A stretch of DNA of 64,000 bases. Source: Streptomyces sp. NBC_01210 (GTDB lineage Bacteria; Actinomycetota; Actinomycetes; Streptomycetales; Streptomycetaceae). The stretch is from assembly GCF_036010325.1 (NCBI RefSeq), contig NZ_CP108549.1, positions 2,356,001 through 2,420,000 of the forward strand. Reading direction: 5' to 3'. This document shows positions 16,412 through 64,000 of the stretch, one piece after another. Numbering within the stretch: the first letter of the stretch is position 1; every line of letters starts with the position of its first letter. The notes under the pieces are model-generated. The model was not told where the DNA came from. It did not search any database and saw only the letters and a program-made list of their open reading frames with translations. A program made the position numbers and the translations under genes.

Positions 16412-16522
16412 GCTCGGCCTCCCGGGGAACTCGGATCCGTTCCGGATCTGATAGAGCGTCAGGGCGGGGGCACCGTAGCAATCCAGCCGTGAGATGAGAA
16501 CACGTTGCACCATCGACACATG

Positions 16523-52257: not shown

Positions 52258-53148
52258 TCACCGAGCCCCGTAGACCGGTTGCGGAGTCTCGGCGTCCGCC
52301 AGCAGCTTCAGCGCGGCCTGGCCCGCTTCGGAGGGAGTCCAGCGCGTTCCCTTGTCCGCGGTGGGTCCCGGCCGCCAGCCCTCCATGACAGTGATACGGC
52401 CCGCCTCGGCCTCGAAGACCCGGCCGGTCACACCCGTACCGGCGGCGGAGCCGAGCCAGACGACGAGCGGCGAGACATCCTCGGGCAGGGCGGAGAGGCC
52501 GGCGAAGGTCTCCTCGGTCATACGGGTACGGGCCGCCGGCGCGATGGCGTTGACCTGGACTCCGTACCGGCCCATCTCCGCCGAGGCGACCAGCGTCAGG
52601 CCGATGATCCCGGCCTTGGCGGCCGCATAGTTGCCCTGGCCGACACTGCCCAACAGCCCGGCTCCGGAGGTGGTGTTGACCACCCGGGCCGCCACCGGCC
52701 GACCCGCCTTGGCCTCGGAACGCCAGTACGCGGCGGCATGCTTGAGCGGCAGGAAGTGGCCCTTCACATGCACCCGCATGACGGCGTCCCAGTCGTCCTC
52801 GTCGAGGTTGACGAGCATCCGGTCGCGCAGAAACCCGGCGTTGTTGACGAGGGTGTCGAGGCGGCCGTACGACTCCAGCGCTGCGGCGACGAGAGAAGCG
52901 GCACCGTCAGTCGTGGCGATGTCGCCGCCGTGCGCCACCGCGGCACCGCCCGCCGCCGTGATCTCGTCGACGACCTGCCGGGCCGGGCCCGCGGAGGAGC
53001 CCGCCCCGTCCGGTCCGACGCCGAGGTCGTTGACGACGACCTTCGCCCCCTCGGCGGCGAAGGCGAGCGCATGGGCCCGTCCGAGACCGCGCCCGGCACC
53101 CGTGACGATGACGACGCGTCCTTCGCAGATTCCGGTTGTCCCAGTCAT
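52258..53148 (-). CDS. Short-chain dehydrogenase/reductase (Rv3548c-like)
   Basis: 296-aa SDR with the NAD-binding VIVTGAGRGLGRAHALAF (about 13-30), LVNNAG (about 109-114) and YAAAKAGIIGLT (about 182-193, catalytic Tyr and Lys). It sits 1 bp behind a second SDR in the same order as Rv3548c-Rv3549c of M. tuberculosis, part of the KstR2 regulon. It is likely to oxidise a hydroxyacyl-CoA of the steroid C/D-ring remnant. Substrate inferred from synteny. Confidence 0.88.
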   Translation of the reverse strand: MTGTTGICEGRVVIVTGAGRGLGRAHALAFAAEGAKVVVNDLGVGPDGAGSSAGPARQVVDEITAAGGAAVAHGGDIATTDGAASLVAAALESYGRLDTLVNNAGFLRDRMLVNLDEDDWDAVMRVHVKGHFLPLKHAAAYWRSEAKAGRPVAARVVNTTSGAGLLGSVGQGNYAAAKAGIIGLTLVASAEMGRYGVQVNAIAPAARTRMTEETFAGLSALPEDVSPLVVWLGSAAGTGVTGRVFEAEAGRITVMEGWRPGPTADKGTRWTPSEAGQAALKLLADAETPQPVYGAR

Positions 53149-53149
53149 C

Positions 53150-53902
53150 TCACGTCTCCTTGTTGACAGTTGCGGCATCGAGGAAGGCGGGGCGTTCCCC
53201 GCCCCCGTGCACCAGCAGCGAGGCTCCGCTCACATACGCCGCCCGCTCCGAGGCGAGGAAGACGGCCGCGTCACCGACCTCCGACGGCTCGGCCGGCCGC
53301 CCCAGCGGCACGGTGCGGCCGACCGCCGCGATGCCCTCCTCGTCCCCGTAGTGCAGATGGGAGAGTTCGGTACGCACCATCCCGAGGACAAGCGTGTTCA
53401 CGCGCACCTCGGGCGCCCACTCCACGGCCATGGACCGGGCCAGGTTCTCCAGTCCCGCCTTCGCCGCCCCGTACGCCGCCGTGCCCGGGGACGGCCGGCC
53501 GCCGCTGACGCTGCCGATCATGACGATCGATCCGCCGGCCGCCTTGAGATGTCCGTACGCGGCGAGCGAGGCGGTCAGTGGCGCGGTGAGATTGAGCTCG
53601 ATCACGCGGGCGTGGCGGGCCGCGTCGCCTTCGCCGAGCAGCCGGTACGGTGTCCCGCCCGCGTTGTTGACGAGAGTGTCGAGCCGGCCGTGCCGCGCCA
53701 CGACCGAGTCGAAGAACTCCCCCACCGCGGCGGGATCGCGCAGATCGAGCGCTACGAACTCGGCTCCGGCGACGGGGACTTCCGGGGGTCTGCGCGCACA
53801 GACCACCACCTCGGCGCCCGCCCGCAGAAAGGCCCGCGCGATGCCCGCGCCCACGCCCCGCGTGCCGCCGGTGACGACGGCGACCCTCCCGTCCAGCTCC
53901 AT
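53150..53902 (-). CDS. Short-chain dehydrogenase/reductase (Rv3549c-like)
   Basis: 250-aa SDR. AVVTGGTRGVGAGIARAF (about 8-25) is the cofactor site; LVNNAGG and YGAAKAGLENLARSM carry the usual catalytic Tyr/Lys. ATG 53902 is 17 bp from the shared operator (53919-53938), divergent from the enoyl-CoA hydratase. Co-transcribed with the SDR that follows. By position and length it matches Rv3549c. Confidence 0.88.
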   Translation of the reverse strand: MELDGRVAVVTGGTRGVGAGIARAFLRAGAEVVVCARRPPEVPVAGAEFVALDLRDPAAVGEFFDSVVARHGRLDTLVNNAGGTPYRLLGEGDAARHARVIELNLTAPLTASLAAYGHLKAAGGSIVMIGSVSGGRPSPGTAAYGAAKAGLENLARSMAVEWAPEVRVNTLVLGMVRTELSHLHYGDEEGIAAVGRTVPLGRPAEPSEVGDAAVFLASERAAYVSGASLLVHGGGERPAFLDAATVNKET

Positions 53903-53918
53903 CGGCTGCTACCTTTCT

Positions 53919-53938
53919 CACCTAACAAATGTTTGGTG
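53919..53938. promoter_or_regulatory. TetR operator of the steroid-ring regulon, site A
   Basis: A 20-bp imperfect palindrome (16 of 20 symmetric). In the other orientation it contains ACCAAACATTTGTTAGG, which differs from site B (62263-62280) at one of 17 positions. Flanks CTACCTTTC and GAAAGGTAG extend the symmetry over 53909-53947 with a 1-base bulge. It overlaps both divergent promoters. Confidence 0.8.
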
Positions 53939-53958
53939 GAAAGGTAGCTGATCCGCTC

Positions 53959-54723
53959 ATGGGTGTCTCCACCGCACGCCCCGAGAAGGGCATCTGTGTC
54001 GTCACGGCCGACTTCCCACCCGTCAACGCACTTCCCGTACAGGGCTGGTACGACCTCGCCGACGCCCTCCGCGCGGCCGGCCGCGACCCCGGGATCCGCT
54101 GTGTCGTCCTGGCCGCCGCGGGCCGCGGCTTCAACGCGGGCGTCGACATCAAGGAGATGCAGCGCGACACCGGACACACCGCGCTCGTCGGCGCCAACCG
54201 CGGCTGTTACGAGGCCTTCGCCGCCGTCTACGAGTGCGAGGTGCCGGTCGTCGCGGCGGTGAACGGCTTCTGCCTTGGCGGCGGTATCGGCCTTGTCGGC
54301 AACGCGGACGTGATCGTCGCCTCCGACGACGCCACCTTCGGCCTGCCGGAGCTGGACCGGGGCGCGCTCGGCGCGGCCACCCATCTCGCCCGTCTCGTCC
54401 CCCAGCATCTGATGCGCGCGCTCTACTACACCTCGCGCACCGCCACCGCGCGGGAGCTGCACGCCCACGGCTCGGTCTGGAAGGTCGTCCCGCGCGAGGA
54501 ACTGGCAGCCGCAGCCCTGGAGTTGGCGCGGGAGATCGCCCGGAAGGACGGTTGTCTGATCCGGCTGGCCAAGGCCGCCATCAACGGCATCGACCCCGTC
54601 GACGTACGCCGCAGCTACCGCTTCGAGCAGGGCTTCACCTTCGAGGCCAACCTCAGCGGTGTCGCCGACCGCGTCCGCGACGCCTTCGGCAAGGACACCT
54701 TCGGCGAGGAGGACCGAGCGTGA
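53959..54723 (+). CDS. echA20: Enoyl-CoA hydratase/isomerase family, EchA20-like
   Basis: 254-aa crotonase-fold enzyme. The oxyanion-hole segments RGFNAGVDIKEMQRD (about 56-70) and NGFCLGGGIGLVGNADVIVA (about 100-119) are present, and the ring-D-cleaving EchA20 of mycobacteria is the closest match by gene order. In the HIP pathway that enzyme opens steroid ring D. ATG 53959 is chosen because an ATG at 53929 lies inside the operator. First gene of echA20-ipdA-ipdB-ipdC, coupled by GTGA overlap. Confidence 0.88.
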   Translation: MGVSTARPEKGICVVTADFPPVNALPVQGWYDLADALRAAGRDPGIRCVVLAAAGRGFNAGVDIKEMQRDTGHTALVGANRGCYEAFAAVYECEVPVVAAVNGFCLGGGIGLVGNADVIVASDDATFGLPELDRGALGAATHLARLVPQHLMRALYYTSRTATARELHAHGSVWKVVPREELAAAALELAREIARKDGCLIRLAKAAINGIDPVDVRRSYRFEQGFTFEANLSGVADRVRDAFGKDTFGEEDRA

Positions 54724-55571
54724 CCGACAAGACCATGACGCCCGACGAGGCGGTGTCCGGGTTCCGCAGCGGAATGACGATCGGCATTGGCGGCTGGGGC
54801 TCGCGCCGCAAGCCGATGGCGCTGGTGCGGGCACTGCTCCGTACCGAGATCACTGATCTCACCGTCGTGTCCTACGGCGGCCCCGACATCGGCCTCCTCG
54901 CCGCCGCCGGCCGGATCCGCAGACTCGTCACGGCGTTCGTCACCCTCGACTCGATCCCGCTCGAACCGCATTTCCGCGCCGCCCGCGAGCGCGGCGACTT
55001 CGCGCTCACCGAGATCGACGAGGCGATGTTCATGTGGGGGCTGCAGGCGGCCGCCAACCGGCTGCCGTTCCTCCCGGTCCGGGCCGGTATCGGATCCGAT
55101 GTCATGCGGGTCAACCCCGGGCTGCGGACGGTCACTTCACCGTACGAGGACGGCGAGGAATTCGTCGCCGTACCGGCCCTGCGGATGGACGCGGCGCTCG
55201 TCCACCTCAATCGCGCCGACCGGCTCGGCAACGGCCAGTATCTGGGCCCCGATCCGTACTTCGACGATCTGTTCTGCGAGGCCGCCGACTCCGCGTGGGT
55301 CTGCTGCGAGCAGCTCGTCGAGACCGCCGAGCTCACCAAGGACGCCGTACCGCAGACCCTGCTGGTCGGACGTCACTCGGTCACCGGCGTGGTCGAGACA
55401 CCGAACGGCGCGCACTTCACCTCCTGCGACCCCGACTACGGCCGCGACGAGGCCTTCCAGAAGCTGTACGCGTCCACCCCCTGGCCGGAGTTCGCCGGGC
55501 GTTTCCTCTCCGGCACGACCGAGCATGACTACCAGTCCGCCGTCCGGACCTGGCACAAGGAGCAGCAGTGA
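54720..55571 (+). CDS. ipdA: IpdA-like CoA-transferase-fold subunit (ring C hydrolase, alpha)
   Basis: 283-aa alpha subunit of the CoA-transferase superfamily. The nucleotide-binding-like start GMTIGIGGWGSRRKPMALVRAL (about 18-39) and AGIGSDVMRVNPGLRTVTSPYEDGEE region are typical. IpdAB of mycobacteria acts as a hydrolase that opens the last steroid ring (ring C) rather than as a transferase. GTG 54720 overlaps the previous stop. Paired with ipdB. Confidence 0.88.
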   Translation: MTDKTMTPDEAVSGFRSGMTIGIGGWGSRRKPMALVRALLRTEITDLTVVSYGGPDIGLLAAAGRIRRLVTAFVTLDSIPLEPHFRAARERGDFALTEIDEAMFMWGLQAAANRLPFLPVRAGIGSDVMRVNPGLRTVTSPYEDGEEFVAVPALRMDAALVHLNRADRLGNGQYLGPDPYFDDLFCEAADSAWVCCEQLVETAELTKDAVPQTLLVGRHSVTGVVETPNGAHFTSCDPDYGRDEAFQKLYASTPWPEFAGRFLSGTTEHDYQSAVRTWHKEQQ

Positions 55572-56299
55572 CCGTCAGCCGTTCCGAGTACTGCGTCGTC
55601 GCCTGCGCCGAGGCCTGGCGGGAGAACGGCGAAGTACTGGCCGCCACCATGGCCCCCGTCTCCTCCTTCGGCGCCCGGCTGGCCAAGCGCACCTTCTCCC
55701 CCGACCTCCTTCTCACGGATGGCGAGGCGATGCTCGTCGACCTCGACGGCGCGACGGAGGGCTGGCTGCCGTACCGCCGGCACCTGGCCATGGTCACCGG
55801 CGGAAAACGGCACGTCATGATGGGCGCGAGCCAGATCGACCGCTTCGGCAACCAGAACATCTCCTGCATCGGCGACTGGGAGCGGCCCGCCCGCCAGCTG
55901 CTCGGCGTACGCGGGGGACCCGTCAACACCCTCAACAATCCGGTCAGTTACTGGGTGCCCAGGCACTCCGCCCGCGTCTTCGTCGAGCGCGTCGACATGG
56001 TCAGCGGCGTCGGTTACGACAACGCGGCCGCCGCGGGCCCGTCCGCGGCCCGCTACCACCGGATCCCGCGCGTCGTCTCCAATCTGGGCGTCTTCGACTT
56101 CGCGACCCCCGACCGCTCGATGCGGCTCGCGTCCCTGCACCCGGGTGTCACGGTCGAGCAGGTCCAGCAGGCGACCGGCTTCGCGGTCACGATCCCCGCC
56201 GACGTCCCCTACACCCGCGAGCCCACCGCTGCGGAGCTGCGGCTGATCCGCGAGGTGATCGACCCGAAGGGCACACGCGAGCGCGAGGTCCCGGCATAG
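55568..56299 (+). CDS. ipdB: IpdB-like CoA-transferase-fold subunit (ring C hydrolase, beta)
   Basis: 243-aa beta subunit. The first residues TVSRSEYCVVACAEAWRENGE and the later LLTDGEAMLVDLD and GASQIDRFGNQNIS stretches match the family. No canonical catalytic Ser-Glu-Asn-Gly motif of true transferases is evident, consistent with a hydrolase role. ATGA overlap with ipdA; 1-base overlap with ipdC. Confidence 0.88.
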   Translation: MTVSRSEYCVVACAEAWRENGEVLAATMAPVSSFGARLAKRTFSPDLLLTDGEAMLVDLDGATEGWLPYRRHLAMVTGGKRHVMMGASQIDRFGNQNISCIGDWERPARQLLGVRGGPVNTLNNPVSYWVPRHSARVFVERVDMVSGVGYDNAAAAGPSAARYHRIPRVVSNLGVFDFATPDRSMRLASLHPGVTVEQVQQATGFAVTIPADVPYTREPTAAELRLIREVIDPKGTREREVPA

Positions 56300-57369
56300 T
56301 GGAGACGGCCCTCACCGGACTCACCGGTGTCCGGCATCCCATCGTGCAGACCGGCATGGGCTGGGTCGCGGGGCCCCGCCTGGTCTCCGCCACCGCCAAC
56401 GCCGGCGCACTCGGCATCCTCGCCTCCGCGACGATGACCACCGACCAGCTGCGCCAGGCCGTCCGCGAGGTCATGTCCCGTACGGACGCGCCCTTCGGAG
56501 TCAATCTCCGCGCCGACGCCGGGGATGCCCGCGACCGGGTCCGGATCATCATCGACGAGGGCGTGAAAGTCGCCTCCTTCGCTCTCGCGCCGTCCCGCGA
56601 GCTGATCGCCGAGCTGAAGGACGCGGGCGTGGTCGTGATCCCGTCCATCGGGGCCCGCCGGCACGCGGAGAAGGTGGCGGCCTGGGGCGCGGACGCGGTG
56701 ATCGTCCAGGGCGGTGAGGGCGGCGGCCATACCGGCGATGTCGCAACGACCGTGCTGCTGCCGCAAGTTGTCGACGCGGTCGATATTCCGGTGATCGCGG
56801 CGGGCGGCTTCCACGACGGGCGGGGACTGGTCGCGGCGCTCGCCTACGGAGCGGCGGGCATCGCCATGGGCACCCGGTTCCTGCTCACCTCGGACTCGAC
56901 GGTGCCGGACGCGGTCAAGGCCCGCTACCTCGCAGCGACCGTCAAGGACATCAGGGTGACCACGGCCGTCGACGGGCTTCCGCACCGCATGCTCCGTACG
57001 GAGCTGGTCGACTCGCTCGAGGGGGCAGGCCGTACAAGAGCGCTGGCGCAGGCCGTACGCCGTGCCGCCGGCTTCAAGAAGCTCTCGGGTCTGTCCTGGT
57101 CGCAGATGATCCGCGACGGTCTGGCGATGAAGCACGGCAGGGAGCTCAGCTGGAGCCAGGTCCTGCTGGCCGCCAACACCCCGATGCTGCTGAAGGCTTC
57201 GATGGTCGACGGCCGCACGGACCTCGGTGTGATGGCATCGGGGCAGGTGGCGGGGCTGATCGAGGACCTTCCGAGCTGCGATGAGCTGGTCAGACGTGTG
57301 ATGACCGAGGCGGCGCGGGTACTCGACGCGCTGCCTCGGGCTGCTCCCCCACCCCGCCCGGTCCCGTGA
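56299..57369 (+). CDS. ipdC: IpdC-like nitronate monooxygenase-family flavoprotein
   Basis: 356-aa FMN-binding TIM-barrel protein of the 2-nitropropane dioxygenase fold, the family of IpdC, which acts on HIP-derived CoA thioesters. VQTGMGWVAGPRLVSATANAG (about 14-34), QGGEGGGHTG (about 135-144, FMN phosphate loop) and IPVIAAGGFHDGRGLVAALAYGA (about 161-183) are visible. GTG 56299 overlaps the ipdB stop. Last gene of the block; hairpins follow at once. Confidence 0.85.
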   Translation: METALTGLTGVRHPIVQTGMGWVAGPRLVSATANAGALGILASATMTTDQLRQAVREVMSRTDAPFGVNLRADAGDARDRVRIIIDEGVKVASFALAPSRELIAELKDAGVVVIPSIGARRHAEKVAAWGADAVIVQGGEGGGHTGDVATTVLLPQVVDAVDIPVIAAGGFHDGRGLVAALAYGAAGIAMGTRFLLTSDSTVPDAVKARYLAATVKDIRVTTAVDGLPHRMLRTELVDSLEGAGRTRALAQAVRRAAGFKKLSGLSWSQMIRDGLAMKHGRELSWSQVLLAANTPMLLKASMVDGRTDLGVMASGQVAGLIEDLPSCDELVRRVMTEAARVLDALPRAAPPPRPVP

Positions 57370-57571
57370 CTGGGGGCAAGCCCCCAGCCCCCGTACGGCC
57401 TTCGGCCGCGTCCTCAATCGCCGGACTGGCTGGGTTTCCCGCCCGTCCGGCGGGAAACCCAGCCTTGCCAGCGACAATAAGCCCCGCCGGCGGACATCCC
57501 AGCCCCTCCGGCGACAATCAGCCAGCCTCGCCGGCGATTGAGGCGCGGGGTTCGGGGCGGAGCCCCGACAA
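57370..57571. repeat. Cluster of interspersed hairpin elements after ipdC
   Basis: It contains hairpin CTGGGGGC-AA-GCCCCCAG (57370-57387) right after the ipdC stop, a 14-bp perfect stem CTGGGTTTCCCGCC with loop CGTCC (57430-57462), inverted and direct copies of CCGGCGATTGAGG (about 57408-57424 and 57530-57542) and the GGGGCGGAGCCCCG hairpin (57554-57567). Probably also terminates ipdC and the convergent helicase gene. Confidence 0.85.
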
Positions 57572-57579
57572 GGCCGGCG

Positions 57580-59157
57580 CTACGCCGCGGTGCGGCGACC
57601 GCCCTGACCGCCCCGCGCCGGACGACCGCCCTGACGAGCCTGTCCGCCCTGTCCGCCCTGAGCGCCCTGCCCGCCCTGTCCACCACGCCGGCCACGGCTG
57701 CGGCCACTTCCACTGCCACCGCCACTGCCACCGCCCTGCGCGGACCGGCCCCCCTGGCTCGGAACCTGCGCACGACGTCGCTGCGGCCGCTGCTGCTGCA
57801 CGACCGGCTGCGGCACCTCGATGGTGATGGCGACACCGGAGGGCTCGCGCGCCCCGGTGATGCGGCTGAGCTCCTCGTCGCTGGACTTGACCCTGGCGGT
57901 GCGCGGGCTGATGCCCGCGTCCGACATCAGCCGGGTCATCTCGCGGCGCTGCTCGGGCAGCACCAGCGTCACGACGCTGCCGGACTCTCCGGCCCGGGCG
58001 GTGCGCCCGCCGCGGTGCAGATAGTCCTTGTGGTCGACGGGCGGGTCGACGTTCACGACCAGGTCGAGATCGTCGACATGGATGCCGCGGGCCGCCACAT
58101 TGGTGGCGACCAGCGCGGTGACCTGCCCGTTCTTGAACTGGTCGAGGGTGCGGTTGCGCTGCGGCTGCGAACGACCGCCGTGCAGCGCCGCCGCCCGTAC
58201 ACCGCTGGACAGCAGCCGCTTGGCGAAACGGTCCGCCGCGCGCTTGGTGTCCACGAAGAGGATCACCCGGCCGTCACGGGCCGCGATACGCGTGGCCACG
58301 GCCTTCTTGTCGGTCTCGTCCGCGACGTGCAGCACATGGTGCTCCATCGTGGTGACCGCGCCCGCGGACGGGTCGACGGAGTGCACGACGGGGTCGGTCA
58401 GGAACATCCGTACGAGCCGGTCGATGTTCTTGTCCAGCGTCGCCGAGAAGAGCATCCGCTGACCGTCCGGCTCAACCTGCTTGAGCAGCGCCGTGACCTG
58501 CGGCATGAAGCCCATGTCGGCCATCTGGTCGGCCTCGTCGAGGACGGTGATCGACACCCGGTCGAGCGCGCAGTCGCCGCGCTCGATGAGGTCCTTGAGC
58601 CGCCCGGGCGTGGCCACGAGCACCTCGGCGCCACGCCGCAGCGTGCCCGCCTGCTTGCTTATCGACAGACCGCCGACGACCGTGGCCAGCCGCAGCTGCA
58701 CCGAGGTCGCGTACGGCGAGAGTGCGTCGGTGACCTGCTGCGCCAGCTCACGGGTCGGTACGAGAACGAGCGCGAGCGGTGCCCGCGGCTCGGCCCGCCG
58801 GCCCGCGGTGCGGGCGAGCAGCGCAAGCCCGAAGGCCAGGGTCTTGCCCGAGCCGGTGCGCCCGCGGCCGAGGATGTCGCGGCCGGCGAGAGAGTTCGGC
58901 AGCGTGGCGGCCTGGATCGGGAAGGGCTCGGTCACGCCCTGAGCCACGAGGGTCTTCAGCAGGGCGGCCGGCATGTCCAGCTCGTCGAACGCCTCGACGA
59001 CAGGCAGCGCGGGGGTGGTGGATTCCGGCAGCGTGAATTCCTGCGGGGCCGCCACCTTGCGGGCGGGAGCCTTGCCGGAGCCCTTGGCAGGGCCCTGGGC
59101 GCGAGAATTGACCGGGCGCTTTCGGGTCGGGCGGGCCGGGCGTTCGGAGCGAGTCAT
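57580..59157 (-). CDS. DEAD-box RNA helicase
   Basis: 525-aa DEAD-box helicase that unwinds RNA duplexes, probably in cold-stress or ribosome assembly. The Q-motif region EPFPIQAATLP (about 75-85), GRGRTGSGKTLAF (about 95-107), PTRELAQQV, VLDEADQMADMGF (about 200-212), and HRGGRTARAGESG are visible. A Gly/Arg-rich RGG-like tail (about 450-525) may bind RNA. ATG 59157 begins MTRSERPARP after a 51-bp upstream extension I reject. It lies behind a cold-shock gene, with a terminator between, and interrupts the steroid cluster. Confidence 0.95.
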   Translation of the reverse strand: MTRSERPARPTRKRPVNSRAQGPAKGSGKAPARKVAAPQEFTLPESTTPALPVVEAFDELDMPAALLKTLVAQGVTEPFPIQAATLPNSLAGRDILGRGRTGSGKTLAFGLALLARTAGRRAEPRAPLALVLVPTRELAQQVTDALSPYATSVQLRLATVVGGLSISKQAGTLRRGAEVLVATPGRLKDLIERGDCALDRVSITVLDEADQMADMGFMPQVTALLKQVEPDGQRMLFSATLDKNIDRLVRMFLTDPVVHSVDPSAGAVTTMEHHVLHVADETDKKAVATRIAARDGRVILFVDTKRAADRFAKRLLSSGVRAAALHGGRSQPQRNRTLDQFKNGQVTALVATNVAARGIHVDDLDLVVNVDPPVDHKDYLHRGGRTARAGESGSVVTLVLPEQRREMTRLMSDAGISPRTARVKSSDEELSRITGAREPSGVAITIEVPQPVVQQQRPQRRRAQVPSQGGRSAQGGGSGGGSGSGRSRGRRGGQGGQGAQGGQGGQARQGGRPARGGQGGRRTAA

Positions 59158-59193
59158 GCGGATATTGCCCTCCTGGGCATGTGAGACAGCACA

Positions 59194-59230
59194 AGCCGGG
59201 GCCCGCACCTTGACGGTGCGGGCCCCGGCT
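59194..59230 (-). terminator. Hairpin between the cold-shock gene and the helicase
   Basis: A 16-bp perfect stem, AGCCGGGGCCCGCACC and its complement, with loop TTGAC lies 20 bp past the cspA-like stop. Confidence 0.9.
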
Positions 59231-59250
59231 GCGAGGTTCGCGTCCGGATA

Positions 59251-59454
59251 TTAGGCCGGGACGATGTTCTCCGCCTGCGGGCCCTTCTGGCCCTGCGTGA
59301 CGTCGAAGGAAACCTTCTGGCCTTCCTGGAGCTCACGGAAGCCCGAGGTGGCGATGTTCGAGTAGTGGGCGAAGACGTCGGCGCCGCCGCCGTCCTGCTC
59401 AATGAAGCCGAAGCCCTTTTCCGAGTTGAACCACTTCACGGTTCCAGTAGCCAT
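59251..59454 (-). CDS. Cold-shock protein (CspA family)
   Basis: 67-aa single-strand RNA/DNA-binding chaperone: [18 protein letters not shown] holds RNP1 (GFGFI) and VFAHYSNI holds RNP2. Typical length and composition. A long leader with two perfect hairpins (59482-59582) precedes it. Confidence 0.97.
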
Positions 59455-59481
59455 GTCATTCTCCTAAAACAGGGGCAAGCC

Positions 59482-59582
59482 GGAAACTCACACCTCGTGA
59501 GTTTCCCGTCGCTGCATTGAGCCCCATCCGGAGATCCGGAAACAAAATGTGCGCCTGAGGAAGCATTCCCGTCAGGCGCACA
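59482..59582 (-). promoter_or_regulatory. Structured leader of the cold-shock gene
   Basis: Two perfect hairpins: a 10-bp stem GGAAACTCAC with loop of 5 (59482-59506) and an 11-bp stem TGTGCGCCTGA with loop of 13 (59548-59582). The stretch 59607-59628 contains TACGGT, a possible -10, so the leader would exceed 150 nt, as known for cold-shock mRNAs that sense temperature by structure. Confidence 0.7.
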
Positions 59583-59649
59583 CGAAGTTCATGGGTACCA
59601 AAACTGCAACGCCGCTACCGTAGCACGACCCGACCGGAAAGGCCCGTGA

Positions 59650-60807
59650 TCACAGCCGCTCGATGATCGTCACGTTCGCCTGACCTCCGCCTTCACACAT
59701 CGTCTGCAGTCCGTATCGCCCACCGGTGCGCTCGAGTTCATGCAGCAGCGTCGTCATCAGCTTCACGCCCGTCGCGCCCAGCGGATGCCCCAGCGCGATC
59801 GCTCCGCCGTTCACATTGACCTTGTCCGGGTCCGCGCCGGTCTCCTTCAGCCAGGCGAGCACCACGGGCGCGAAGGCCTCGTTGATCTCGACCAGGTCGA
59901 TGTCGCCGATCGACATGCCGGCCTTCTTCAGCGCGTACGCCGTCGCCGGGATCGGGGCCGACAGCATCCGGATCGGATCCTCGCCGCGCACCGAAAGGTG
60001 GTGGATACGCGCGCGCGGCACAAGGCCGTGCTCGGCGACGGCCCGTTCGCTCGCGATCAGCATCGCCGCCGCGCCGTCCGAGACCTGGGAGGAGCAGGCC
60101 GCCGTGATGGTGCCGCCCCCCATGACGGGCTTCAGACCCGCCATCTTCTCCAGCGATGTGTCGCGGCGCGGCCCTTCGTCCGCCGTGACCTCGCCGTACG
60201 CCACCAGCTCCCGTTCGAAGCGGCCCTCGTCGGCGGCGCGGACCGCCCGCCGGTGGGAACGGAGGGCGAACTCCTCCATGTCGCGCCGCGAGATCCCCCA
60301 CTTCTCGGCGATCAGCTGCGCGCCGTGGAACTGGTTGACCGGCAGGTCGCCGTAGCGGGCCCGCCAGCCCTCGCTGCCCGCGAAGGGACCCACCGTCAGC
60401 CCGAGCGCTTCGGCCGCCTGCCGGGACGCGAAGGCGATAGGGATCTGCGTCATGTTCTGGGTGCCGCCGGCGACCACCAGGTCCTGAGTGCCGGAGAGCA
60501 CTCCCTGTGCGGCGAAGTGGACCGCCTGCTGCGAGGAGCCGCACTGCCGGTCGACCGTCACGCCCGGCACCTCCTCCGGCAGACCGGCCGCCAGCCATGC
60601 CGTACGGGCGATGTCGCCGGCCTGCGGGCCCACCGTGTCCAGGCAGCCGAAGACGACGTCCTCGACCGCCGTGGGGTCCACACCGGTCCGTGCGACGAGG
60701 GCCCCCAGGACATGCGCGCCGAGGTCGGCCGGGTGGACACCGGCCAGTCCCCCTCCTCGCCTGCCCACCGGCGTGCGTACCGCTTCGACTATGTATGCCT
60801 CGGCCAT
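59650..60807 (-). CDS. fadA6: Acetyl-CoA acyltransferase, FadA6-like thiolase
   Basis: 385-aa thiolase cleaving a 3-ketoacyl-CoA. The active-site Cys is in VDRQCGSSQQAVHF (about 90), His in NGGAIALGHPLGATG (about 342), and the second Cys in LQTMCEGGGQANVTII. ATG 60807 begins MAEAYIVEAVRTPVGR. In the mycobacterial KstR2 regulon FadA6 performs a late thiolysis of the ring-C/D products. Same strand as the TetR gene. Confidence 0.92.
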   Translation of the reverse strand: MAEAYIVEAVRTPVGRRGGGLAGVHPADLGAHVLGALVARTGVDPTAVEDVVFGCLDTVGPQAGDIARTAWLAAGLPEEVPGVTVDRQCGSSQQAVHFAAQGVLSGTQDLVVAGGTQNMTQIPIAFASRQAAEALGLTVGPFAGSEGWRARYGDLPVNQFHGAQLIAEKWGISRRDMEEFALRSHRRAVRAADEGRFERELVAYGEVTADEGPRRDTSLEKMAGLKPVMGGGTITAACSSQVSDGAAAMLIASERAVAEHGLVPRARIHHLSVRGEDPIRMLSAPIPATAYALKKAGMSIGDIDLVEINEAFAPVVLAWLKETGADPDKVNVNGGAIALGHPLGATGVKLMTTLLHELERTGGRYGLQTMCEGGGQANVTIIERL

Positions 60808-60824
60808 GACGGCTCCTCGATCGG

Positions 60825-61442
60825 TCAGCTGCGTACGGCGATACCGTCCAGCACCATCGACAGGTACTGACGGGCGATCTCCTCCGGGCTGTGCTGCCCG
60901 CCCGGCCGGTACCAGGACGCCGCGACCCACACCGTGTCGCGGACGAACCGGTACGTGAGGCGGATGTCCAGGTCGGCGCGGAAGACCTGGCCCGCGACCC
61001 CGCGCTCCAGCGTCCCCAGCCACGCCTTCTCGAACTTCTGCTGCGAGTCCGTGAGGTAGTGGAAGCGCGGCTGAACCGCCAGATGCCTGGACTCCTTCTG
61101 GTAGATGGCGACGGCGGCGCGGTGCCGGTCGATCTCCCGGAAGGACTCGGTGACGAGCGCCTCGATGGTCTCCCTGGGCCCGAGCCCGGCGGCGAGCACG
61201 GCGTCGTAGCCCTGCCAGAGCTCGTCCAGGAAGGTGGAGAGGATCTCGTCGAGCATCGATTCCTTGGAATCGAAGTGGTAGTAGAGGCTGCCGGCGAGCA
61301 TTCCGGCCCGGTCCGCGATCTTGCGGACGGTGGTGGCGTTGTAACCCTGCGCGGCGAACACCTCGGCGGCGGTGTCGAGGAGCTCGCGGCGGCGCTCGGG
61401 CGTGGCGCTCACCTGGTTCTTCTTCTTGCTTCTTGTCGGCAC
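60825..61442 (-). CDS. kstR2: TetR-family regulator, KstR2-like
   Basis: 205-aa TetR repressor. The N-terminal HTH region (about 18-64) contains LLDTAAEVFAAQGYNATTVR, then IADRAGMLAGSLYYHF and DSKESMLDEI. The large C-terminal ligand domain would bind an acyl-CoA (HIP-CoA in KstR2). It is flanked by fadA6 and an SDR exactly as kstR2 in M. tuberculosis. It is the likely binder of the two near-identical operators at 53919-53938 and 62263-62280; the operator half-sites differ from the mycobacterial KstR2 box I remember. Confidence 0.85.
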   Translation of the reverse strand: MPTRSKKKNQVSATPERRRELLDTAAEVFAAQGYNATTVRKIADRAGMLAGSLYYHFDSKESMLDEILSTFLDELWQGYDAVLAAGLGPRETIEALVTESFREIDRHRAAVAIYQKESRHLAVQPRFHYLTDSQQKFEKAWLGTLERGVAGQVFRADLDIRLTYRFVRDTVWVAASWYRPGGQHSPEEIARQYLSMVLDGIAVRS

Positions 61443-61457
61443 GGGACCATTCTCGTC

Positions 61458-62246
61458 CTACGCATGCTGACTGCTGATGGAGACGACCTCGCCGGTGAGA
61501 TACGAGGAGTAGCCGCTGGCGAGGAAGACGATGGCGTTGGCGATCTCCCAGGGTTCGGCGTACCGCCCGAAGGCCTCCTTGGCGGTCAGCTCTGTCAGCA
61601 GCTCGGCCGAGGTGACCTTTACCAGGTGCGGGTGCATGGCGAGGCTGGGGGCGACGGCGTTGACGCGTACGCCGTACTCGGCCGCCTCGACCGCCGCGCA
61701 CCGGGTGAGCGCCATGACTCCGGCCTTGGCGGCGGCGTAGTGGGCCTGACCGGCCTGGGCGCGCCAGCCGACGACGGAGGAGTTGTTGACGATCACTCCG
61801 CCGCGTCCGGTTGTCCTGAAGGAGCGCAGGGCGGCGCGGGTGCAGCGGAAGGTGCCGTTCAGGGTGACGTCGAGGACCTTGCCCCACTGGTCGTCGCTCA
61901 TGTCGACGAGTGCCGCGGTGCCGCCCAGGCCGGCGTTGTTGACGACAATGTCGAGGCCGCCGTGCTGCCGTACGGCCGTGTCGAACAGCGCCTGGACCCG
62001 GGCCTCGTCGGTGACGTCGCAGGGCAGTGAGGTCACGGCCGCCGCGCCGAACTCCTCGGCGAGCGCCTCCTGCGACTCCTTCAGGCGGCAGGCGTGCGCG
62101 TCGCTGATGAGGATGCGCGCGCCCTCCTCCAGGAACTTCCGGGCGGTCGCTCCGCCGATCCCGGCTCCGGCCGCGGCGGTGATGACGGCGGTACGGCCCT
62201 TCAGAAGGCCATGGCCGGGTACGTACTGCGCCCTGTTGTTCGTCAC
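61458..62246 (-). CDS. ipdF: Short-chain dehydrogenase, IpdF-like
   Basis: 262-aa SDR. GRTAVITAAAGAGIGGATARKF (about 17-38) is the cofactor loop, LDIVVNNAGLGG and YAAAKAGVMALTRC carry conserved residues. Length and position match Rv3559c (IpdF), which oxidises 5-hydroxy-HIP-CoA. First gene of ipdF-kstR2-fadA6, divergent from the acyl-CoA dehydrogenases, with operator B between. Confidence 0.88.
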   Translation of the reverse strand: MTNNRAQYVPGHGLLKGRTAVITAAAGAGIGGATARKFLEEGARILISDAHACRLKESQEALAEEFGAAAVTSLPCDVTDEARVQALFDTAVRQHGGLDIVVNNAGLGGTAALVDMSDDQWGKVLDVTLNGTFRCTRAALRSFRTTGRGGVIVNNSSVVGWRAQAGQAHYAAAKAGVMALTRCAAVEAAEYGVRVNAVAPSLAMHPHLVKVTSAELLTELTAKEAFGRYAEPWEIANAIVFLASGYSSYLTGEVVSISSQHA

Positions 62247-62262
62247 AGCGGCACGTTAACCT

Positions 62263-62280
62263 ACCAAACACTTGTTAGGG
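62263..62280. promoter_or_regulatory. TetR operator of the steroid-ring regulon, site B
   Basis: ACCAAACACTTGTTAGGG lies between ipdF (start 62246) and the dehydrogenase gene (start 62293). It shares 16 of 17 bases with the core of site A (53919-53938). The same sequence at two divergent promoters 8 kb apart is strong evidence for one regulator. Confidence 0.8.
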
Positions 62281-62292
62281 AAGGATGCGCGA

Positions 62293-63552
62293 ATGGACCT
62301 GGACCACTCCGCCGACGAGGAAGCCTTCCGGGCCGAGGCCCGCGCCTGGCTCGCCGCGAACGTGCCCGCCGAGCCCCTGCCCTCCCTGGAGACCGAGGAG
62401 GGCTTCGCGGCCCACCGCGCGTGGGAGGCGCGGCTGTACGCGGACCGCTGGTCGGTCGTCTCCTGGCCGCGGGAGTACGGCGGGCGGGGCGCCGACATCT
62501 TCGGCTGGCTGGCCTTCGAGGAGGAGTACTACGCGGCGGGCGCGCCGGGACGGGTCTCGCAGAACGGCATCAACCTCCTCGCCCCGACGCTCTTCGACCA
62601 CGCCACCGAGGAGCAGCGCGCCCAGGTGCTGCCCGCGATGGCGAGCGGCGAGGTCGTCTGGGCACAGGCCTGGTCCGAGCCGGAGTCCGGCTCGGACCTC
62701 GCGTCGCTGACGTCGCGGGCCGTACGGACAAACGGCGGCTGGCTGCTCAGCGGCCAGAAGACCTGGTCCTCGCGGGCCGCGTTCGCCGACCGCGCGTTCG
62801 GCATCTTCCGCACCGGTTCGGAGGCGCGGGTCGCCGGTCCCGAGACACGGGTCGCCGGTCCGGGGGCGGAGGTCGCCGGTCCCGAGGCACGGGTCGCCGG
62901 TCCGGGGGCGGAGGTCGCCGGTCCAAAGGCGTCGCGGCCGCATCAGGGTCTGACGTATCTGATGTTCGACCTGTCGGCGCCGGGTGTGACGGTCCGGCCG
63001 ATCGGCAGGCTCGACGGCAAGCCCGCCTTCGCCGAGCTCTTCCTCGACGATGTCTTCGTCCCCGACGAGGACGTGATCGGCGAGCCGGGCCAGGGCTGGC
63101 GGATCGCGATGTCCACGACCGGCAACGAACGGGGGCTGACCCTGAGGTCGCCCGGCCGTTTCCTGGCTGCGGCGGAGCGTCTCGTACGGCAGTGGCACGC
63201 GTCGGCCGACCGGCCGGAAGGCCACGACACCGCGCTGCGCGACCGGGTGGCGGACGCGGTGATCGGCGCGCGTGCCTATCAGCTTTTCACCTACGCCAAC
63301 GCGTCGCGCTTCGCGGCGGGCGAGAGCATCGGCGCCGAGTCCAGCCTGAACAAGGTCTTCTGGTCCGAGTACGACATCGCGCTGCACGAGACCGCGCTCG
63401 ATCTGCTGGGCGCGGAGGGGGAGTTGGCCGACTCCGACTGGTCCGAGGGCTATGTCTTCTCGCTGGCGGGCCCCATCTATGCCGGTACGAACGAGATCCA
63501 GCGCGACATCATCGCCGAGCGTCTGCTCGGCCTCCCGAAGGGCCGCCGCTGA
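62293..63552 (+). CDS. Acyl-CoA dehydrogenase, FadE30-like
   Basis: 419-aa FAD acyl-CoA dehydrogenase. The FAD-binding WAQAWSEPESGSDLAS (about 128-143) and GPIYAGTNEIQRDIIAERLLG near the C-terminus are family signatures. ATG 62293 begins MDLDHSADEEAF after GGGAAGGA. By gene order it corresponds to FadE30 (desaturation of 5-hydroxy-HIP-CoA). A run of five VAGP heptads (residues about 180-211) is an in-frame tandem expansion in a loop. Overlaps the next gene by 1 base, so they may form a heteromeric enzyme. Confidence 0.9.
   Translation: MDLDHSADEEAFRAEARAWLAANVPAEPLPSLETEEGFAAHRAWEARLYADRWSVVSWPREYGGRGADIFGWLAFEEEYYAAGAPGRVSQNGINLLAPTLFDHATEEQRAQVLPAMASGEVVWAQAWSEPESGSDLASLTSRAVRTNGGWLLSGQKTWSSRAAFADRAFGIFRTGSEARVAGPETRVAGPGAEVAGPEARVAGPGAEVAGPKASRPHQGLTYLMFDLSAPGVTVRPIGRLDGKPAFAELFLDDVFVPDEDVIGEPGQGWRIAMSTTGNERGLTLRSPGRFLAAAERLVRQWHASADRPEGHDTALRDRVADAVIGARAYQLFTYANASRFAAGESIGAESSLNKVFWSEYDIALHETALDLLGAEGELADSDWSEGYVFSLAGPIYAGTNEIQRDIIAERLLGLPKGRR
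62830..62924 (+). repeat. 21-bp in-frame tandem repeat in the dehydrogenase gene
   Basis: GTCGCCGGTCC recurs at 62830, 62851, 62872, 62893 and 62914, exactly 21 bp apart, encoding VAGP plus three variable residues each time. Copies 2-3 and 4-5 alternate two unit types, so a 42-bp duplication is also visible. Confidence 0.92.
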
Positions 63553-64000
63553 TGCGTTTTCTGCTCACGGATGAGCAACAGGCGTTCGCGCGCTCGCTGG
63601 ACGCGATGCTCACCGCCGCGGACACACCGTCGGCGGTACGGGCGTGGTCGGCGGGCGACCACGCCCCGGGCCGGACGCTGTGGTCGCGCCTCGCGGAGGC
63701 GGGGGTCTTCGCGCTTGCGGCCCCGGAAGCGTACGAGGGCGTAGGGCTGCTACCGGTGGAACTGGCGGTAGCCTTCGTGGAGTTGGGCCGTCATGCGGTG
63801 CCGGGCCCGGTGGTCGAGACGGTCGCGACGGCGGCGCTGCTGACGCATCTGGCCGAGCACGGCGACGCGTCACCGGCGAAGCGGCTGCTGCCGGGCCTGG
63901 CGACGGGTGAGTCGACGGCGACGCTGGCGATGACGCTGCCACCGACGGGGTGCGGTCCGTACGCGCTGGACGCGGACGCGGCGACGGTGACTTTGGTGGT
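63552..64000 (+). CDS. Acyl-CoA dehydrogenase, N-terminal part (runs off window)
   Basis: Open to the right edge, 149 codons visible, beginning MRFLLTDEQQAFARSL. N-terminal helical domain signatures of acyl-CoA dehydrogenases are present (FALAAPEAYEGVGLLPVELAVAFVELGR). ATG 63552 overlaps the previous stop by 1 base. Likely the second subunit of a heteromeric steroid acyl-CoA dehydrogenase with the preceding gene. Confidence 0.85.
   Translation, partial: MRFLLTDEQQAFARSLDAMLTAADTPSAVRAWSAGDHAPGRTLWSRLAEAGVFALAAPEAYEGVGLLPVELAVAFVELGRHAVPGPVVETVATAALLTHLAEHGDASPAKRLLPGLATGESTATLAMTLPPTGCGPYALDADAATVTLV

What the first reader, a model, noticed from the sequence alone, without database searches (positions are those of the whole stretch)
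52258..64000. Split steroid C/D-ring regulon under one TetR operator
Gene order (two SDRs, echA20, ipdA, ipdB, ipdC; then fadA6, kstR2, ipdF, two acyl-CoA dehydrogenases) mirrors the KstR2 regulon of mycobacteria, but here a cold-shock gene and a DEAD-box helicase sit in the middle. Sites at 53919-53938 and 62263-62280 share 16 of 17 core bases. Steroid degradation of HIP by a Streptomyces-like host is implied; FadD3 should lie to the right.
Basis: partly seen in the sequence, partly recalled or inferred. Interest (0 to 1): 0.74.

Follow-up and report, generated by a model that had tools for sequence, protein, structure and literature searches.

The report
Streptomyces steroid-ring regulon, second control circuit
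The window holds the gene set and control sites that mycobacteria use to break the last two rings of steroids, here in a Streptomyces in which we found none of the usual key genes for the first two rings and which may feed these enzymes from a second, separately controlled gene cluster elsewhere in its chromosome.

Summary
In detail: echA20-ipdABC, two SDRs, fadA6-kstR2-ipdF and two acyl-CoA dehydrogenases form a KstR2 regulon with two near-identical operators, the only copies with at most 2 mismatches in the 9.2-Mb genome and conserved in the Streptomyces loci read (24 of 25 and 23 of 23 genomes). The predicted fadD3 is not in the 16 kb to the right. The dehydrogenases are FadE31/FadE32-like; fadD3, ipdE1 and ipdE2 are not in the locus. 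Relatives of them lie 1.7 Mb away in a conserved ~45-kb cluster with its own operator, ATCTGACGNNNCGTCAGAT. KshA and HsaC were not found in this genome. IpdA is in 136 of 199 genus genomes; 118 of the 136 lack a strong KshA. The clusters are tied by co-occurrence and by an uncultured family in which the second regulator and its operator sit at the ipd operon instead of KstR2 (2 of 2 ipd loci read). Reading: a KstR2 regulon detached from canonical A/B-ring catabolism and probably fed by a second regulon of unknown substrate (HIP or a relative). The cold-shock/helicase split is trivial.

The parts
52258..53178 (-). SDR, counterpart of Rv3548c by place and similarity
   Evidence: function not known
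53150..53902 (-). SDR, counterpart of Rv3549c by place and similarity
53921..53939 (+). KstR2-type operator 1, between the SDR pair and echA20
   Evidence: present in 24 of 25 Streptomyces genomes read
53929..54723 (+). echA20 (ring D hydrolase); the listed ATG lies inside the operator, an in-frame ATG at 53959 is the likelier start (inference from the sequence)
54720..55571 (+). ipdA (COCHEA-CoA hydrolase alpha subunit)
   Evidence: 6co6_A at 8.3e-98
55568..56299 (+). ipdB (beta subunit), with Gly where CoA transferases have the catalytic Glu
   Evidence: 6co6_B at 1e-82; Gly57 check; meaning from a passage of PMC5380842
56296..57369 (+). ipdC (flavin-dependent 5-OH HIC-CoA reductase type)
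57580..59208 (-). DEAD-box helicase, bystander
   Evidence: in part of the relatives only
59251..59454 (-). cold-shock protein gene, bystander
   Evidence: in part of the relatives only
59650..60825 (-). fadA6 (beta-keto thiolase)
60825..61442 (-). kstR2 (TetR-family repressor)
   Evidence: KstR2 structures 4w1u/4w97 at about 2.5e-56
61458..62246 (-). ipdF (SDR)
62261..62279 (-). KstR2-type operator 2, between ipdF and fadE31
   Evidence: present in 23 of 23 Streptomyces genomes read
62293..63552 (+). fadE31-type acyl-CoA dehydrogenase with a 21-bp repeat at 62813-62931; start at 62293 inferred
   Evidence: 60% to the L095 gene after fadD3; repeat
63549..64000 (+). fadE32-type acyl-CoA dehydrogenase; runs on to genome 2,421,171 (L009 5171)
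   Evidence: 57% and 46% over its two ends to L095 fadE32

Best explanation
The window is a KstR2 regulon for opening steroid rings D and C (EchA20, IpdAB, with IpdC, IpdF, FadA6 and FadE31-FadE32), repressed by KstR2 at two operators and, by inference, released by HIP-CoA or a relative. In this Streptomyces, as in most genus members that carry it, no canonical A/B-ring genes were found, and the HIP side-chain genes (fadD3, ipdE1, an extra echA, ipdE2) are not in the locus. Substrate activation and first dehydrogenation are proposed to come from a second regulon about 1.7 Mb away, which has a FadD3-family ligase, IpdE1- and IpdE2-like dehydrogenases, Ltp-type thiolases with ChsH2-like partners, a luciferase-like monooxygenase and a flavin reductase, under a different TetR protein (TetR_C_38) at ATCTGACGNNNCGTCAGAT. 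Shown by sequence: gene identities, both operator sets, co-occurrence, and the joined arrangement in other families. Inferred: that the two regulons make one pathway, and which protein binds which site. Unknown: the parent substrate (HIP released by other bacteria, or another hydrindane).
For: Regulon identity. No fadD3/ipdE2 in 16 of 16 KshA- Streptomyces loci read (20 kb each) and no ipdE1 trace in 14 of 16, against ipdE1 and the echA in 9 of 9 KshA+ genomes read. Remote homologues. Remote regulon: 10 sites with at most 2 mismatches within 4,116.8-4,160.0 kb and none in the rest of 128 kb; 248 sites in 80 named loci against 0 for the reversed pattern. Link: ipdA and the FadD3 family agree in 189 of 199 genomes, ipdA and IpdE1 in 191 of 199; in family f14 the TetR_C_38 homologue and second-type sites lie at SDR2|echA20-ipdABC in 2 of 2 loci read, and on ipdE1 and the monooxygenase in a third genome, with an identical recognition-helix stretch; in f18 second-type genes sit next to ipdABC in 2 of 6 genomes read. 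Trees.
Against: Nothing is measured. 15 of 18 KshA+ Streptomyces have two or more strong FadD3-family ligases, so the remote one may serve another acid; in the tree it groups with the f14 ligase and not with the mycobacterial locus FadD3, and second mycobacterial paralogues fall in the same wider clade. No KstR2-type site in the remote cluster and no second-type site in the window above chance. Two further f14 stretches with FadD3-family ligases (L245, L246) and four of six f18 genomes read show no second-type site. Of 8 KshA- f17 genomes none has a FadD3-family ligase over the cut-off. Co-occurrence is not corrected for phylogeny; 7 ipdA genomes lack the ligase and 3 have it alone.
Confidence: 0.65

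Rival explanations
1. HIP scavenger: the Streptomyces takes up HIP released by other steroid degraders and uses the KstR2 regulon with whatever ligase and dehydrogenases it has; the remote cluster serves an unrelated acid and co-occurs with ipdA only through clade history.
For: No KstR2-type site in the remote cluster; KshA+ strains mostly keep both ligase types; co-occurrence not corrected for phylogeny; a 1977 title reports HIP metabolism by a Streptomyces (reference seen).
Against: In f14 and f18 the two gene sets lie together or share the second operator, and the remote set holds relatives of just the missing enzymes.
Confidence: 0.23
2. Canonical steroid degrader with dispersed genes: A/B-ring enzymes are present but scattered or divergent, and fadD3 has merely moved.
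For: 18 of 199 genus genomes do carry KshA and ipdA, mostly with HsaC; in Saccharopolyspora hirsuta fadD3 lies outside the clusters (passage of PMC8708139).
Against: No PF19298 match at E<=0.001 and no HsaC match at E<=1e-60 in this genome.
Confidence: 0.08
3. Decaying relic of an ancestral steroid pathway, without present function.
For: Side-chain genes are broken in one relative, G038: echA in two pieces, ipdE1 partial with a stop.
Against: No stop inside any IpdA match listed for 136 genomes, though three matches are partial or split (G058, G152, G169); both operators are conserved.
Confidence: 0.04

Closest known systems
KstR2 regulon of M. tuberculosis, M. smegmatis and R. jostii RHA1 (Crowe et al. 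2017, PMC5380842; passages and Table 1 text)
   Same: Same core genes in the same order and directions (two SDRs, echA20-ipdABC, fadA6-kstR2-ipdF, fadE31-fadE32), KstR2 orthologue, operators of the same kind at matching places.
   Different: fadD3, ipdE1 (fadE30) and ipdE2 (fadE33) are not in the locus; KshA and HsaC not found in the genome; operator half-sites differ by a base.
Saccharopolyspora hirsuta steroid clusters (PMC8708139; passages)
   Same: C/D-ring genes with fadD3 outside the cluster.
   Different: A full cholesterol degrader; its fadE30 and fadE33 stay in the cluster.
HIP metabolism by Streptomyces rubescens (Hashimoto and Hayakawa 1977; seen only as a reference in PMC5380842)
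   Same: By its title, a Streptomyces forming metabolites from HIP.
   Different: Paper not read; genes and strain relation unknown.
KstR regulon (upper steroid pathway) as partner of KstR2 (passage of PMC8399759)
   Same: A second TetR regulon placed upstream of a KstR2 regulon.
   Different: The second regulator here is a TetR_C_38 protein with another operator and other genes.

Membership tests
KstR2 regulon | KstR2 orthologue | tested here: met
   4w1u/4w97 at about 2.5e-56, 47% to the L090 protein
KstR2 regulon | ipdA, ipdB, ipdC, echA20, fadA6, ipdF in the known order | tested here: met
KstR2 regulon | KstR2-type operators at the divergent promoters | tested here: met
   binding not tested
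KstR2 regulon | fadD3, ipdE1 and ipdE2 in the regulon | tested here: not met
   absent from the locus; relatives 1.7 Mb away without a KstR2-type site
KstR2 regulon | response to HIP-CoA | not testable with these tools
   needs protein and ligand
Complete 9,10-seco steroid degradation | KshA | tested here: not met
   0 matches to PF19298 at E<=0.001 in this genome
Complete 9,10-seco steroid degradation | HsaC | tested here: not met
   no match at E<=1e-60 in this genome; weaker matches not examined
Complete 9,10-seco steroid degradation | KstD and the KstR regulon | not tested
   no search made

The most novel reading that the evidence does not exclude
Most Streptomyces with ipdA, at least two genomes of family f18 (Frankia-like, name guessed) and an uncultured actinobacterial family (f14) share an undescribed upper pathway, run by a TetR_C_38 repressor at ATCTGACGNNNCGTCAGAT. 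It turns a substrate other than the KshA/HsaC-processed steroids into HIP-type CoA esters for the KstR2 ring-opening enzymes, and the two repressors have swapped control of the same genes between lineages.
Probability: 0.45. Interest if true: 0.75.

Novelty: new variant of a known kind. Interest (0 to 1): 0.6.

Why it matters
Bergstrand et al. 2016 (PMC4810484, passages) list 55 of 57 Streptomyces genomes as lacking a steroid pathway, yet 136 of 199 genus genomes here carry IpdA. In the class sample all 53 genomes with a KshA match at E<=1e-60 also have IpdA, while 54 of 107 IpdA carriers have no such KshA. The C/D-ring module thus seems to have a life apart from A/B-ring catabolism in one of the commonest soil genera, and the second regulon with its operator makes the unknown substrate findable.

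Tried and rejected
Side-chain module simply lost: my reading, overturned, which found FadD3-, IpdE1- and IpdE2-like genes together 1.7 Mb away.

KstR2 control of the remote cluster: not supported; best score 9.1 bits against 36-38 for the window's sites, with a matrix built partly from those same sites.

Second-type operator in the window: one hit with 3 mismatches at 16446, 0.52 expected.

A palindrome at genome 4121034 was considered as an operator; it was not listed for the other three remote clusters.

csp/DEAD insertion as a meaningful split: rejected (convergent gap, 12 of 25 genomes).

'Strong' KshA is my own line (E below 1e-70). In one search, 59 of 199 genomes had a PF19298 match at E<=0.001 and 57 passed the Pfam cut-off; scores fall from 8.5e-78 straight to 4.3e-28, and I counted only the 18 genomes above that gap. 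Likewise for HsaC: 36 of 199 at E<=1e-60, none over the curated cut-off, 17 at 333 bits or more and the next at 289.

f14's IpdA matches proteins mostly without organism names, a few named Mycobacteriales, Frankiales or Frankiaceae bacterium. Frankia for f18, and 'mycobacterial' (G446, G376), 'Rhodococcus-like' (G549) and similar labels, are guesses from gene content and genome size.

Prior reports: searches returned listings; no title or abstract listed is about a Streptomyces KstR2 regulon. Passages only were read in PMC5380842, PMC4810484, PMC3388012, PMC8708139 and PMC8399759. Most subscription journals are not held, so whether this is in print is open.
Full report
1. What is in the window. 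ORFs, family profiles and solved-structure matches confirm two SDRs (-), echA20-ipdA-ipdB-ipdC (+), fadA6-kstR2-ipdF (-) and two acyl-CoA dehydrogenases (+). KstR2 matches 4w97 at 2.6e-56; IpdA and IpdB match 6co6 at 8.3e-98 and 1e-82. Every organism name shown among the 120 listed KstR2 relatives (of 3866) is Streptomyces.

2. The operators. CCTAACAAATGTTTGGTGG (53921-53939) and, on the other strand, CCTAACAAGTGTTTGGTAG (62261-62279). No shuffle of the window gives a match; in the genome only these two have at most 2 mismatches, two more have 3. In Streptomyces genomes for which I held the stretch, a site lies near the echA20 start in 24 of 25 and within 2.2 kb upstream of ipdF in 23 of 23, at up to 2 mismatches. 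The exception, G091, is rearranged and has a site in front of ipdA. Mycobacterial and Rhodococcus-like loci have CAAAGCAAGTGCTTGGTAGG and the like at matching places.

3. The split. Each half has its own operator and the csp/DEAD pair lies between the convergent ends of ipdC and fadA6. It occurs in 12 of 25 Streptomyces genomes read. In the mycobacterial loci other DNA lies there.

4. No fadD3 to the right. In the 16 kb beyond the window come unrelated genes, among them gltD- and gltB-like ones (labels recalled). Against a Rhodococcus-like reference locus (L095; its FadD3 and HsaA, B, C, D pass their curated cut-offs) the window's dehydrogenases are FadE31 (60%) and FadE32 (57% and 46% over its two ends), not IpdE1 or IpdE2. 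IpdE1 (FadE30) and IpdE2 (FadE33) dehydrogenate 5-OH-HIP-CoA (PMC8708139 passage).

5. Where the side-chain genes are. Of nine KshA+ Streptomyces genomes read, 9 of 9 have ipdE1 and the extra echA at the locus, and 7 of 9 show fadD3 and ipdE2 in the stretches held (not G074 and G195). Of 16 KshA- loci read (20 kb each), none shows fadD3 or ipdE2; ipdE1 is whole in G015 and broken in G038; the echA is whole in G137 and G035 and in two pieces in G038. IpdE1 at 600 bits or more is in 30 of 199 genus genomes: 17 of 18 KshA+ and 13 of 118 IpdA+ KshA-. The window's genome instead has a FadD3-family ligase (821 bits, cut-off 657), an IpdE1-like dehydrogenase (61%) and an IpdE2-like one (38% to the reference; 212 bits, under the 450 cut-off) within 29 kb of each other, 1.7 Mb from the window.

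6. The remote cluster looks like a regulon. It also holds two Ltp-type thiolases with ChsH2-like partners, a luciferase-like monooxygenase, an HsaB-like flavin reductase (198 bits, cut-off 230), an ADP-forming CoA ligase, an enoyl-CoA hydratase, SDRs, a cyclase, amidohydrolases, an aldehyde dehydrogenase and a TetR_C_38 protein, much of it conserved in three other genomes. A 19-bp palindrome ATCTGACGNNNCGTCAGAT recurs: in 128 kb, 15 hits with up to 3 mismatches, all between 4,116.8 and 4,160.1 kb, 10 with at most 2; one of the 15 (4147118) is inside a gene and probably chance. G066, G009 and G098 have 10, 12 and 12 hits in 60 kb each. Expectation is 0.10-0.11 per 20 kb against 7 and 5 found. 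In 80 named loci (1.5 Mb; 79 Streptomyces) there are 248 hits at up to 2 mismatches against 0 for the reversed pattern, and 79 of 80 monooxygenase promoters hold one at up to 3 mismatches (shuffled control 2 of 1600). These loci are related and not independent. In 31 other loci (583 kb) five hits were found, three of them at related genes.

7. Linking the two. (a) In 199 genus genomes: ipdA with the FadD3 family 129, ipdA alone 7, ligase alone 3, neither 60; ipdA with IpdE1 132, alone 4, IpdE1 alone 4, neither 59 (Fisher p 6e-39 and 1.5e-40, not corrected for phylogeny). (b) Family f14 has IpdA and no KshA at E<=1e-60 in 7 of 7. Both ipd loci read (L235, L236) have the TetR_C_38 homologue (49%) beside SDR2-echA20-ipdABC and a second-type site (1 mismatch) in the SDR2|echA20 gap, where Streptomyces has KstR2's. 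A third genome (L146) has perfect sites on ipdE1 and the monooxygenase and a weak one (3 mismatches) at fadE31|fadA6. No KstR2-type site was seen in these. The recognition-helix stretch GTSPATFYQYF is identical. Two other f14 stretches with FadD3-family ligases (L245, L246) have no such site. (c) In f18, a KstR2-type site is in front of ipdA in 4 of 5 loci of genus g64 read (not L102); in two of six f18 genomes (G303, G322) second-type sites (1-3 mismatches) lie at the neighbouring monooxygenase, aldehyde dehydrogenase and amidohydrolase genes. (d) In f17 genome G420 a KstR2-type site lies between flavin-reductase and Ltp genes of a ligase cluster. (e) Trees: IpdE1-like groups with IpdE1 (99/99) and IpdE2-like with IpdE2 (100/100); FadD3-like groups with the f14 ligase (99/96), not with mycobacterial locus FadD3, and the wider clade holds paralogues of unknown role. 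Several long branches are flagged.

8. No canonical upper pathway found. KshA: none in own genome; strong in 18 of 199, all with IpdA. HsaC: none at E<=1e-60 in own genome; 333 bits or more in 17, all KshA+; G181, the 18th, has only a weak one. Class sample of 394: IpdA 107, KshA at E<=1e-60 53, all 53 with IpdA. KshA+ of IpdA+ by family: f4 33 of 33, f26 12 of 12, f35 1 of 1, f46 1 of 1, f17 5 of 13, the window's genus 1 of 29, f18 0 of 10, f14 0 of 7, f12 0 of 1. FadD3-family ligase over the cut-off: f18 10 of 10, f14 7 of 7, f17 KshA+ 5 of 5, f17 KshA- 0 of 8, f12 0 of 1, genomes without IpdA 0 of 9 (55 chosen genomes).

9. Against this reading. Nothing is measured. 15 of 18 KshA+ Streptomyces have two or more strong FadD3-family ligases, so the remote one may have another substrate. 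Co-occurrence may follow clade history. The site-to-protein pairing is inferred.

10. Verdict. What remains is a ring-opening module detached from its usual supply and probably tied to a second regulon of unknown substrate. On checking I lowered the novel reading from 0.50 to 0.45, because the f14 and f18 negatives and the FadD3 tree had been left out.

Noticed in passing
62813-62931, and L009 4017-4550 (genome 2420017-2420550, past the window end): In-frame minisatellites inside the two dehydrogenase genes: a 21/42-bp repeat in fadE31 and a 132-bp unit x4 in fadE32, which is 540 codons long against 354 in the L095 relative.
   Followed up: partly
L009 15824-16305 (genome 2431824-2432305): Another long in-frame tandem repeat (177-bp unit) in a gene to the right of the window.
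   Followed up: no
L082 (G137): A Streptomyces ipd locus with both operators in which no kstR2 was found between ipdF and fadA6.
   Followed up: no
L069 5164-6478 (G038): echA in two pieces and a partial ipdE1 with a stop: side-chain genes decaying at an ipd locus.
   Followed up: partly
genome 4121034-4121052: Palindrome CTATACATCGTATGTATAG in front of a remote-cluster amidohydrolase gene; not listed in the three other remote clusters.
   Followed up: no
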